Shown here piece after piece: positions 33,747 through 36,265 of a stretch of DNA of 64,000 nucleotides. Numbering within the stretch: the stretch's first letter is position 1; the number at the start of each line of letters is the position of its first letter. A program made the position numbers and the translations under genes. Where the stretch lies: assembly GCF_023101085.1 (NCBI RefSeq), contig NZ_CP064703.1, forward strand, positions 248,001 to 312,000, in the 5' to 3' direction. Under the pieces are notes generated by a model. The model was not told the DNA's origin and ran no database searches. It was given only the letters and a program-made list of their open reading frames with translations. Source of the stretch: Bradyrhizobium sp. 170. Lineage in GTDB: Bacteria > Pseudomonadota > Alphaproteobacteria > Rhizobiales > Xanthobacteraceae.

Positions 33747-33917
33747 CGTCGTCCCTGCGAACGCAGGGACCCATACCGCGTGATCCATCGATGGGACGCG
33801 GTCGCAGACGCCCTGCGTTGCCCAACACCCGCGTTGGATTGCTGAACCGAATCCGTCTTCCCTCTTGCCCATTCCAACGGCCGCGGCGTATGGGCCCCTG
33901 CGTTCGCAGGGGCGACG
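33747..33917. repeat. Palindromic repeat, CGTCGTCCCTGCGAACG family, copy 1
   Basis: A 171-bp element with ends CGTCGTCCCTGCGAACGCAG and CTGCGTTCGCAGGGGCGACG and inner complementary blocks CCCATACCGCG/CGCGGCGTATGGG. It starts 28 bases after the pseudocaspase stop and is followed by copy 2 in the same orientation. Confidence 0.92.
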
Positions 33918-33944
33918 AGTTGATAGGTTCTCGCCTTTTCCCAC

Positions 33945-34109
33945 GGTCGTCCCTGCGAACGCAGGGATCCATACCGCGTGATCCCTCAATAGCGCGCGGT
34001 CGCAAACGCTCTGCCAACTACCTCTGTGGCTTGCTGAGGCAAAGCCGTCTTCCAATGTGCCCAATACGCCGGCCGCGGCGTATGGGTCCCTGCGTTCGCA
34101 GGGACGACG
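33945..34109. repeat. Palindromic repeat, CGTCGTCCCTGCGAACG family, copy 2
   Basis: A 165-bp element, same ends and inner blocks as copy 1, 27 bases after it. The internal 90 bases differ at many sites, so the two copies are not a recent tandem duplication. It ends 16 bases from the stop of the GIY-YIG gene. Confidence 0.92.
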
Positions 34110-34125
34110 AGAGAGTGAGTTCCGC

Positions 34126-34407
34126 TCACACAATCAGATCGCTGAGATCGCGCCACTCCAGATTCTCGCGCTCGATCAGCTCGATCTTCCAGTTCCGCTT
34201 CCAGCGCTTGAGTTGCTTTTCACGGGCGATCGCCTCATCCGGCCGCTCGAACGCCTCGACATAAACCAGGCGATAAACACCGTAGGTCTTGACGAACGAG
34301 GAGCCTTCGCCGTTGCGATGCTGCTCCTTGCGTTTCGAAAGGGAATTTGTGACCCCGATATACAAGGTCCCATGCCGCCGGCTCGCAAGGATGTAGACGT
34401 AATACAT
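34126..34407 (-). CDS. GIY-YIG nuclease-family protein (COG2827, YhbQ-like)
   Basis: A 93-residue single-domain GIY-YIG protein. The start ATG at 34407 (MYYVYILASRRHGTLYIGVT) is the family start; an in-frame extension to 34494 is translated repeat sequence. The two-strand signature reads YVYIL...GTLYIGVTN, followed by the Arg in SKRKEQHRNG, the catalytic-type Glu in YVEAF, and REKQLKRWKRNWKIELIE. The family cuts DNA, with roles in repair or mobility known for some members. Copies of one palindromic repeat lie 16 bases beyond its stop and 14 bases before its start, framing the gene exactly. This suggests that gene and repeats travel or act together. Confidence 0.9.
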   Translation of the reverse strand: MYYVYILASRRHGTLYIGVTNSLSKRKEQHRNGEGSSFVKTYGVYRLVYVEAFERPDEAIAREKQLKRWKRNWKIELIERENLEWRDLSDLIV

Positions 34408-34421
34408 GCGCGAAACACTGC

Positions 34422-34540
34422 CGTCGTCCCTGCGAACGCAGGGACCCATACCGCGTGATCTATCGATAGAGTGCGGTAGCAGATACCTTATCACACAACT
34501 AGCGACGGTGGTTATGGCCCCTGCTTTCGCAGGGGCGACG
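34422..34540. repeat. Palindromic repeat, CGTCGTCCCTGCGAACG family, copy 3
   Basis: A 119-bp, internally shorter copy with left end CGTCGTCCCTGCGAACGCAG and right end CCCCTGCTTTCGCAGGGGCG. It begins 14 bases upstream of the GIY-YIG start and ends 5 bases before the stop of the minus-strand adaptor gene at 34546. Translating through it yields the residues GMGPCVRRDDG, a frequent artefact N-terminus. Confidence 0.9.
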
Positions 34541-35614: not shown

Positions 35615-35633
35615 CGCGTCGTTGGAGGATGCC

Positions 35634-35864
35634 ATGCAGGTTTCAAAATGGGGTGACAGCCTGGCCGTGCGGCTGCCCAAAGCCCTGGTCGAAAAGATGG
35701 GCCTGCGGGCAGGCGACGAACTCGACATCGTCGACGTGGCCGAGCGAACGCTGATCGTCCAGAAGGAAGACCGCCGCAAGGCCGCGCTCGAGCGTCTGGC
35801 TTCGCTGAACTGGGCGCTTCCTCCCGATTACAAGTTCGATCGGGACGAGGCGAACGAACGGTGA
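35634..35864 (+). CDS. AbrB/MazE-fold antitoxin (VapB-type)
   Basis: A 76-residue DNA-binding antitoxin. The start is the ATG at 35634 with GGAGG at 35624-35628. The swapped-hairpin SpoVT/AbrB domain reads QVSKWGDSLAVRLPKALVEK then GLRAGDELDIV; the C-terminal part (NWALPPDYKFDRDEANER) should wrap the toxin. It overlaps the toxin gene by four bases (GTGA), the standard arrangement for coupled translation. Its complex with the PIN toxin probably binds the large palindrome just upstream. Confidence 0.9.
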   Translation: MQVSKWGDSLAVRLPKALVEKMGLRAGDELDIVDVAERTLIVQKEDRRKAALERLASLNWALPPDYKFDRDEANER

Positions 35865-36265
35865 AGGCGTTTTTCGATACCAACATTCTCGTCTACACCG
35901 CGACTTCGGACGCCAGAAAACAACGGGCGGTGGATTGCCTGAGCCGCGGCGGTGTCGTCAGCGTTCAGGTGCTGAACGAGTTCGTTCACGTCGCCCGCCG
36001 CAAGCTTCGTCATGACTGGCCGCAGATCGAACTGGCGCTCGGGCTGTTCCGCGCGTCGCTCGATGACGTCTTGCCCGTCACGCTGAACATTCACACGGGC
36101 GCCGTGTCCCTCGCCCGCGAGCACGGCGTGCCGTTCTATGACGCCCTGATCGTCGCCGCCGCCATCGAGGCCGGTTGTGACACGCTGTTCAGCGAAGACA
36201 TGCAGCACGGCCGCAGCATCGGCGGCCTCGCCATCGTCAATCCGTTTCTCGATAGTGCACCGTAG
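35861..36265 (+). CDS. PIN-domain toxin (VapC-type ribonuclease)
   Basis: A 134-residue PIN nuclease starting with a GTG at 35861 inside the antitoxin stop. Acidic metal-binding residues are in place: D6 (FFDTNILVY), E near 40 (LNEFVHVA), D in PFYDALIVAAA and D in LFSEDMQHG. Family members cut specific RNAs, often initiator tRNA or rRNA, when free of antitoxin. The four residues being intact, the module looks functional. The substrate is unknown. Confidence 0.9.
   Translation: MKAFFDTNILVYTATSDARKQRAVDCLSRGGVVSVQVLNEFVHVARRKLRHDWPQIELALGLFRASLDDVLPVTLNIHTGAVSLAREHGVPFYDALIVAAAIEAGCDTLFSEDMQHGRSIGGLAIVNPFLDSAP

What the first reader, a model, noticed from the sequence alone, without database searches (positions are those of the whole stretch)
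33747..34540. GIY-YIG gene boxed by three copies of one palindromic repeat: a possible nuclease-repeat mobile unit
The 93-codon GIY-YIG gene is framed with 16 bases on one side and 14 on the other by copies of the same palindromic family (ends CGTCGTCCCTGCGAACG and its complement), with a further copy next to the left one. The repeats are not related to the gene by coding. Tight framing is what is seen for REP elements and their RAYT transposases, where a single-domain nuclease moves or maintains hairpin repeats. A GIY-YIG enzyme acting on this repeat family would be a new kind of such system. Alternatively the repeats only tolerate insertion around small accessory genes.
Basis: partly seen in the sequence, partly recalled or inferred. 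Interest (0 to 1): 0.72.

Follow-up and report, generated by a model that had tools for sequence, protein, structure and literature searches.

The report
GIY-YIG nuclease paired with palindromic repeats
A small nuclease gene in this soil bacterium is framed by copies of a hairpin-forming repeat that is scattered through the genome, and relatives of the gene in many other bacteria are often framed by their own version of such repeats, so the nuclease is probably the missing enzyme partner of this widespread class of bacterial repeats.

Summary
The repeats fit the CGTC-tagged REPs, which a 2013 paper says 'apparently lack a dedicated transposase' (PMC3733652). GIY-YIG genes look like that partner. 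All 32 intact close homologues examined carry the same hairpin within 160 bp on at least one side. Other subfamilies carry their own; repeat classes fit the gene tree with the fewest possible changes. Outside loci named Bradyrhizobium, 44 of 81 genes have such repeats on both sides, against 1 of 114 other ORFs. Across 117 genomes repeat number follows the cognate gene in three classes, with exceptions. The gene is mostly stationary: five sites for 37 close homologues, one for 24 of the next subfamily; none in 50,697 phage records, 33 of 72,556 plasmid records. This works like REPIN-RAYT with an unrelated nuclease; it is not a unit that jumps as a whole. I recall (not held, unread) a 2025 paper on GIY-YIG 'Ssn' nucleases cutting single-stranded DNA at a Neisseria repeat; if recalled rightly, the pairing is known in kind. 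Cutting and mobilisation are inferred.

The parts
34126..34407 (-). 93-aa GIY-YIG nuclease (PF01541, UPF0213-like); Y5, Y16, G18, R26, H30, E63 present and invariant in relatives
   Evidence: AlphaFold2 model mean pLDDT 93; only PDB match with E under 0.001 is 1zg2 (E 3.7e-4, TM 0.58)
33747..33917 (.). REP doublet 1 (171 bp): hairpins at 33750-33769 and 33895-33914 in inverted orientation, CGTC tags outward
33945..34109 (.). REP doublet 2 (165 bp): hairpins at 33948-33967 and 34087-34106; ends 16 bases from the gene's stop codon; left tag reads GGTC
34422..34540 (.). REP doublet 3 (119 bp, in the commoner length class): hairpins at 34425-34444 and 34518-34537; begins 14 bases from the gene's start codon

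Best explanation
A small, mostly stationary, host-inherited GIY-YIG nuclease is the dedicated partner of CGTC-tagged REPs. It recognises its cognate hairpin plus the CGTC tag, probably in single-stranded or extruded DNA (for example on the lagging strand), and nicks there; repair or recombination of the cut ends then copies, converts, shortens or occasionally moves REP doublets, so the repeat population is fed by the gene and decays after gene loss. The gene's own flanking REPs are the ends of the ancestral unit (hairpin - gene - hairpin). Shown in silico: framing, matching of gene class and repeat class, coupling of copy number to the cognate gene, few sites per subfamily, and different repeat states at orthologous sites. 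Inferred: binding, single-strand cutting, and that cutting drives spread.
For: (1) Framing: 32 of 32 intact A-subfamily genes have an A hairpin within 160 bp on at least one side; with a strict detector 52 of 82 intact genus genes have a REP within 100 bp on both sides and 72 of 82 on at least one, against 5 and 57 of 219 other ORFs of 200 aa or more in 60 of the loci (the 57 includes neighbours of the unit itself). (2) Breadth: in loci not named Bradyrhizobium 44 of 81 on both sides and 63 of 81 on at least one, against 1 and 13 of 114 other ORFs, and 0 and 1 of 84 when the flanks are read backwards. (3) Upstream and downstream stems of one gene agree in 7.41 of 8 bases against 5.11 when shuffled, maximum 5.63 in 5,000 (n=63). 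(4) Specificity: six repeat classes on the tree of 82 proteins need 5 changes, the fewest possible for six labels; 4 unlabelled genes not counted. A genes have A hairpins nearby at each of their 5 sites. (5) Copy number: cognate AUC 0.80, 0.93 and 0.73 for A, B and C; stratified one-sided p 1e-4, 5e-5 and 5e-5. (6) One orthologous intergenic site read in 56 genomes holds nothing recognisable, A, B or D doublets, scars, a frameshifted relic gene or a gene.
Against: No biochemistry. Five of 33 genomes with a full-length A gene (two of the 33 genes have one internal stop) have fewer than 10 A hairpins (G009, G042, G067, G070, G087), and 17 genomes scored as having neither gene nor fragment have 40 or more (one of them, G005, proved to hold a frameshifted A relic). 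One non-cognate pair is significant in the positive direction (repeat C with gene B, stratified p 0.0046). The own genome has only 3 strict matches to the L003-type repeat although it has that gene. In 200 kb sampled from each of 6 other genera the cognate stem was found 0-2 times. Of five homologue loci read in the plasmid collection, palindromes were detected in two, seen by eye in one, and in R. rhododendri and Photobacterium none such was found in about 200 bp. Outside Bradyrhizobium 18 of 81 genes have no detected REP on either side. No target duplication was defined. Most loci of a subfamily are orthologous, so framing counts within the genus are not independent.
Confidence: 0.62

Rival explanations
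1. Ssn-type control of DNA transfer without mobilisation: the nuclease cuts incoming or replicating single-stranded DNA at the repeats and thereby modulates transformation or recombination; repeats spread by ordinary gene conversion and selection, not by the enzyme.
For: An N. gonorrhoeae homologue is 45/85 identical to the window protein and stands among CGTCATTCCCGC..GCGGGAAT palindromes; PMC3733652 files the Neisseria dRS3 repeat as CGTC-1. I recall, unread, a 2025 report that a Neisseria GIY-YIG protein cuts single-stranded DNA at a repeat and affects transformation. Doublets at one site carry different cores in different species, as conversion would give.
Against: Copy number rises with the cognate gene in three classes, which a pure cutter would not obviously cause. 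The family also occurs in groups not known to me to be transformable (general knowledge, not tested).
Confidence: 0.22
2. The palindromes are regulatory: hairpins at both ends act as operator, terminator or mRNA stabiliser for the GIY-YIG gene, and genome-wide copies are unrelated passengers.
For: The nearest upstream hairpin often lies 10-45 bases from the start codon; REPs are plausibly transcribed (PMC3733652, passages).
Against: The same stem at both ends with tags outward as the commonest arrangement, the agreement between gene class and genome-wide repeat number, and doublets without the gene at orthologous sites.
Confidence: 0.06
3. Repeats tolerate insertion around small accessory genes, so the framing is a bystander effect.
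For: REPs lie mostly between unidirectional and convergent ORFs (PMC3733652, passages); the window site also takes D-like doublets without any gene.
Against: Other ORFs are framed on both sides in 5 of 219 and 1 of 114 cases (these controls are mostly longer genes, small genes were not tested as such), and the bystander view does not predict class matching.
Confidence: 0.04
4. Gene plus repeats is an autonomous transposon of ordinary kind.
For: Hairpin - gene - hairpin with tags outward is the commonest arrangement (33 of 82; 45 of 104); A genes occupy 5 sites, two genomes have two copies, and at the second site the gene lies in opposite orientation in G037 and in the others.
Against: Few sites per subfamily, one site for B, no phage and few plasmid records, no target duplication recognised.
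Confidence: 0.06

Closest known systems
REPIN-RAYT / REPtrons (GTAG REPs with HUH tyrosine transposases; passages of PMC8049555 and PMC3733652 seen)
   Same: Inverted hairpin doublets, gene framed by its own repeats, low-copy mostly stationary gene, more repeats in genomes holding the gene, gene rare on plasmid records.
   Different: The enzyme is a GIY-YIG nuclease, not an HUH tyrosine transposase; the tag is CGTC, not GTAG.
CGTC-tagged REPs (Di Nocera, De Gregorio and Rocco 2013, PMC3733652; abstract, sections 6 and 11 and passages seen)
   Same: Tag, 8-9 bp stem, CCA tail, inverted dimers, Bradyrhizobium named as a host.
   Different: The paper reports no dedicated transposase; here a GIY-YIG gene goes with each of the three classes whose copy number was tested.
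Ssn single-strand nuclease family and its repeat in Neisseria (2025; recalled, not held, nothing read)
   Same: Small GIY-YIG protein; a Neisseria homologue is 45/85 identical and stands among CGTC-type palindromes.
   Different: As far as I recall that work is about cutting and transformation; the coupling of repeat number to gene and the REPIN-like doublets are what is added here, in silico. I cannot say what the paper covers.
UPF0213 proteins 1zg2 and 1ywl; Slx1; I-TevI and UvrC GIY-YIG domains
   Same: Fold (only 1zg2 has E under 0.001) and, for the first two, sequence.
   Different: Slx1 and UvrC act on branched or damaged DNA; no repeat partner is known to me for any of them.

Membership tests
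CGTC-tagged REPs | Unpaired CGTC (or TGTC, CCTC) tag at one end of the stem | tested here: met
   one of the six window hairpins has GGTC
CGTC-tagged REPs | 8-9 bp stem, short loop, CCA tail | tested here: met
   9 bp + 2 nt or 8 bp + 4 nt, tail CCATA; 4-5 nt loops are the rule and Bradyrhizobium CGTC-1 is named as an exception. The consensus sequences of the paper's Figure 2 were not held, so the exact family was not matched.
CGTC-tagged REPs | Mostly inverted dimers, high copy number | tested here: met
   18 doublets in the 30 own-genome loci examined (overlapping loci among them), 136 hairpin matches genome-wide
REPIN-RAYT | HUH tyrosine transposase | tested here: not met
   protein is PF01541 GIY-YIG
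REPIN-RAYT | GTAG tag | tested here: not met
   tag is CGTC
REPIN-RAYT | Gene vertically inherited, not seen on plasmids | tested here: met
   few sites per subfamily; 33 of 72,556 plasmid records, several chromosome-sized, so rare rather than absent; 0 of 50,697 phage records
REPIN-RAYT | More repeats where the gene is present | tested here: met
   with exceptions
Ssn nucleases (recalled) | Small GIY-YIG homologue of the Neisseria protein | tested here: met
   45/85 identical to the N. gonorrhoeae homologue; that this protein is Ssn is my recall
Ssn nucleases (recalled) | Site-specific cutting of single-stranded DNA | not testable with these tools
   needs purified protein
Autonomous insertion sequence | Terminal repeats with many dispersed gene copies | tested here: not met
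   5 sites for 37 A loci, one for 24 B loci, 7 for the other 30
Autonomous insertion sequence | Target-site duplications | tested here: inconclusive
   filled and empty sites differ in more than the repeat; no duplication recognised by eye
GIY-YIG nucleases | Catalytic-type residues and fold | tested here: met
   Y5, Y16, G18, R26, H30, E63 invariant in 33 sequences; model mean pLDDT 93. Which residues are catalytic is recalled.

The most novel reading that the evidence does not exclude
Small GIY-YIG nucleases are the dedicated mobilising partners of the CGTC-REP superfamily across bacterial phyla: a second, independently evolved REPIN-type system in which a domesticated nuclease of a different fold takes the place of the RAYT and breeds hairpin-doublet populations.
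Probability: 0.55. Interest if true: 0.8.

Novelty: new variant of a known kind. Interest (0 to 1): 0.66.

Why it matters
CGTC-REPs have been recorded in five phyla, and the paper that defined them left open what multiplies them. A testable enzyme for them would show that REP-type genome populations arose with two unrelated nucleases, would give a natural collection of paired nuclease and hairpin specificities, and would explain why small GIY-YIG genes and these repeats keep company in so many genomes.

Tried and rejected
Rejected: chance framing; a whole-unit transposon as the main mode; phage cargo. Rejected too: a class of GIY genes without hairpins. That impression came from a detector limited to loops of 2-6 bases; of the 17 loci then read by eye most show long-loop CGTCATTCCGGG palindromes or other repeats, while L096 and L118 do not clearly fit. 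Led nowhere: cognate-repeat sampling of 200 kb from each of 6 other genera was too thin; insertion boundaries and target duplications could not be fixed; own-genome doublets do not group into young copies, 18 doublets giving 17 core groups. NCBIfam gave no family. The Mantel test of protein against stem distance outside Bradyrhizobium is weak (r 0.19, p 0.0024; only pairs under 70% identity r 0.13, p 0.032; n=63). Unstratified, repeat C is lower with gene A (p 0.047) and higher with gene B (p 0.0041).

Rows dropped: of 91 GIY loci in the genus, 82 intact distinct ones entered (internal stop, length outside 85-125 aa, or duplicate left out). Of 110 wide loci, 104 intact ones entered (own L155 also left out); one search used 84 without that filter. 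Carriers of A fragments were left out of the A comparison (4; 5, G005 added) and 3 doubtful B carriers of the B comparison; 4 genomes without a usable marker match were missing. Genomes counted as gene-bearing include some whose gene has an internal stop or is partial in the search listing (for instance G102 and G012 for A, G072 and G057 for B, G046, G113, G082 and G087 for C). The match lists were cut by the tool; the per-genome counts are whole. The 60 loci were picked by me down the ranked list, not all of it. The site count (6 for A) was corrected to 5, where L043 proved to be the second site with the gene reversed.

Full report
What is there. The window lies in a single-contig 9.2 Mb genome; the named relatives with the nearest genes are mostly Bradyrhizobium. 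The gene at 34126-34407 (minus) encodes 93 aa with a PF01541 domain. Its model is confident (mean pLDDT 93) and nearest in the PDB to UPF0213 protein 1zg2 (E 3.7e-4, TM 0.58), then Slx1 (E 0.019). On each side stands a REP doublet: two hairpins (GTCCCTGCG-AA-CGCAGGGAC type) in inverted orientation with tags outward and CCATA tails inward, 14 and 16 bases from the gene, and a further doublet to the left. Eighteen doublets found in 30 own-genome loci (some overlapping) fall into two length classes, 119-123 and 165-171 bp, with conserved ends and variable cores.

The repeats have a name. Di Nocera and colleagues (PMC3733652; I saw the abstract, sections 6 and 11 and passages) divided REPs into GTAG and CGTC superfamilies. 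CGTC REPs are mostly alphaproteobacterial, include Bradyrhizobium and the Neisseria dRS3 repeat, form inverted dimers, and 'apparently lack a dedicated transposase'. The window repeats fit tag, stem, tail and dimer form; the paper's consensus figure is not held, so the exact family was not matched.

The gene goes with the repeat. In 117 genomes of the genus, a search with the window protein and later fetches gave 91 GIY loci. All 32 intact close homologues (A subfamily, 78% identity or more) have an A hairpin within 160 bp on at least one side. Most of the 63-71% group (B) have GTCCTGGC or GTCCCGGC hairpins about 45 bases upstream and 15 downstream. The 56-61% group (C) has TCGCCCGG hairpins; three C-like genes have E-type hairpins instead (L110, L115 on both sides, L108 upstream). 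Three genes (D) have ATGGCCGGG or ATTGCCGGG stems, and many that first seemed bare have long-loop ATTCCGGG palindromes. With a strict detector, 52 of 82 intact genes have a REP within 100 bp on both sides and 72 of 82 on at least one, against 5 and 57 of 219 other ORFs of 200 aa or more in 60 of the loci. Repeat class on the protein tree needs 5 changes for six classes, the fewest possible; four unlabelled genes were not counted. Most members of a subfamily share one orthologous site (A: 37 loci at 5 sites; B: 24 loci at one; others: 30 loci at 7), so these counts are not independent. The independent part is that A genes have A hairpins nearby at each of their five sites, and that the pattern recurs in other genera.

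Outside the genus. A class-wide search (86 of 190 genomes with a match; 30 loci) and a named-genome scan (the 80 best loci) gave 110 loci. Among 81 intact ones not named Bradyrhizobium, 44 have REPs on both sides within 130 bp, 63 on at least one and 18 on neither; controls are 1 and 13 of 114 other ORFs of 120 aa or more, and 0 and 1 of 84 when the flanks are read backwards. Upstream and downstream stems of one gene agree in 7.41 of 8 bases against 5.11 shuffled. Loci with a tagged palindrome on at least one side include records named Flavobacteriia, Deltaproteobacteria, Zixibacteriota, Uhrbacteria, Komeilibacteria and Nomurabacteria (most are metagenome bins, so the host is less sure). Five homologue loci from the plasmid collection were read: N. 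gonorrhoeae (45/85 identical to the window protein) stands among CGTCATTCCCGC..GCGGGAAT palindromes; S. meliloti has CCTCATCCCTGTG palindromes; Planktothrix has GTCATTCTGAG..AGAATCTC repeats by eye only; R. rhododendri and Photobacterium gave no such palindrome in about 200 bp.

Repeat number follows the cognate gene. Median A hairpins are 54 with and 9.5 without the A gene; B 145 and 7.5; C 18 and 9. Stratified by identity of a neighbouring gene to the window (113 genomes), the three cognate pairs give one-sided p of 1e-4, 5e-5 and 5e-5. Of six non-cognate pairs five are not significant in the positive direction and one is (repeat C with gene B, p 0.0046). Exceptions exist: five of 33 A-gene genomes have fewer than 10 A hairpins, and 17 genomes scored as lacking the A gene have 40 or more; one of those, G005, has a frameshifted A relic beside its repeats. 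Three strata are a coarse control for relatedness.

Repeats come and go; the gene mostly stays. At the window's own intergenic site (30 loci fetched; three lack the left gene) nine loci hold the gene (broken in G051, one internal stop in G102), four hold only an A doublet (G037, G038, G056, G032), others hold D-like doublets (such as G012, G036, G084), truncated A repeats (G086, G049) or no such repeat (such as G114, G080, G089, G072). At a second site, read in 56 genomes (16, 40), there are A doublets with several different cores, B doublets (G110, G046, G060), D-like doublets (G084, G006), a gene (G037, G038), a relic (G005), fused or truncated scars (G103, G071, G022) or nothing recognisable (for instance G088, G094, G104, G013), 23 of the 37 A loci lie at this second site. 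G037 and G038 hold the A gene there and only a doublet at the first site; in G037 the gene lies in the orientation opposite to the others. The gene was found in 33 of 72,556 plasmid records, several of them chromosome-sized, and in 0 of 50,697 phage records (one query protein, from L106).

How it probably works. [quoted passage not shown] coli genomes with a RAYT. Apart from the enzyme class and the tag, each of these points is matched here at least roughly. I therefore propose that the GIY-YIG protein recognises its cognate tagged hairpin as single strand or cruciform and nicks it, and that repair of such cuts copies, converts or deletes doublets. Binding, cutting and the link from cutting to spread are inferred. 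The GIY-YIG fold and its likeness to a branched-DNA nuclease (Slx1) make hairpin cutting plausible, no more.

What is already known. From memory only, a 2025 paper describes 'Ssn', a family of small GIY-YIG nucleases that cut single-stranded DNA site-specifically, found through a Neisseria protein and a repeat that surrounds many genes, with many homologues having their own targets. The library does not hold it under the identifier I tried, and the searches listed no paper that by title and abstract joins GIY-YIG to REPs; a term search within two later REP papers (PMC12306157, PMC6006769) found no 'GIY' term. Absence from this library is not absence from print. If recall is right, the pairing of enzyme and sequence is known in kind and the window is a further member; the identification with CGTC-REPs, the coupling of copy number to gene and the REPIN-like inheritance may be new. 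I therefore score it as a new variant of a known kind, of the REPIN-RAYT type.

Limits. No species tree was built; the tree of 82 short proteins is poorly resolved (46 of 78 inner branches open); small non-GIY genes were not used as a framing control; sampling of other genera for repeat number was too thin.

Noticed in passing
L283 and L133; also L276, L309, L320, L330: REP hairpins seem to be insertion targets themselves: elements with CTAG-type ends lie inside REPs (CTAGGGCATCTACACATCT.. in G053, a similar one in G109), and a 22-base palindrome CTAGTGCGCAATTGCGCACTAG or close variants recurs inside REP hairpins (G033, G093, G101, part in G001). Seen by eye.
   Followed up: no
L001:1300-1740: A third small GIY-YIG gene of the own genome, of another subfamily, sits directly after what looks by eye like a tRNA-Ala gene and has no CGTC repeat that I could see.
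   Followed up: no
window 35622-36265: Two adjacent small ORFs look by eye like an AbrB-type antitoxin and a PIN-domain toxin pair; no family search was run.
   Followed up: no
L108, L110, L115: Three genes of the C subfamily are flanked by E-type repeats (ATGCCCCGC / ATCGTCCGC; L108 only upstream); they group together on the gene tree and may show a switch of specificity.
   Followed up: partly
own-genome doublets, window 33747-34540: Doublet ends combine three sub-terminal modules (CCATACCGCGTGATC, CCATACGCCGCGG, CCATAACCAC) in varying pairs at nearly fixed total length, as if ends were reassorted.
   Followed up: partly
L270: On a Planktothrix plasmid the GIY-YIG gene lies between an MmeI-type restriction gene and a DISARM drmA gene (record annotation).
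   Followed up: no
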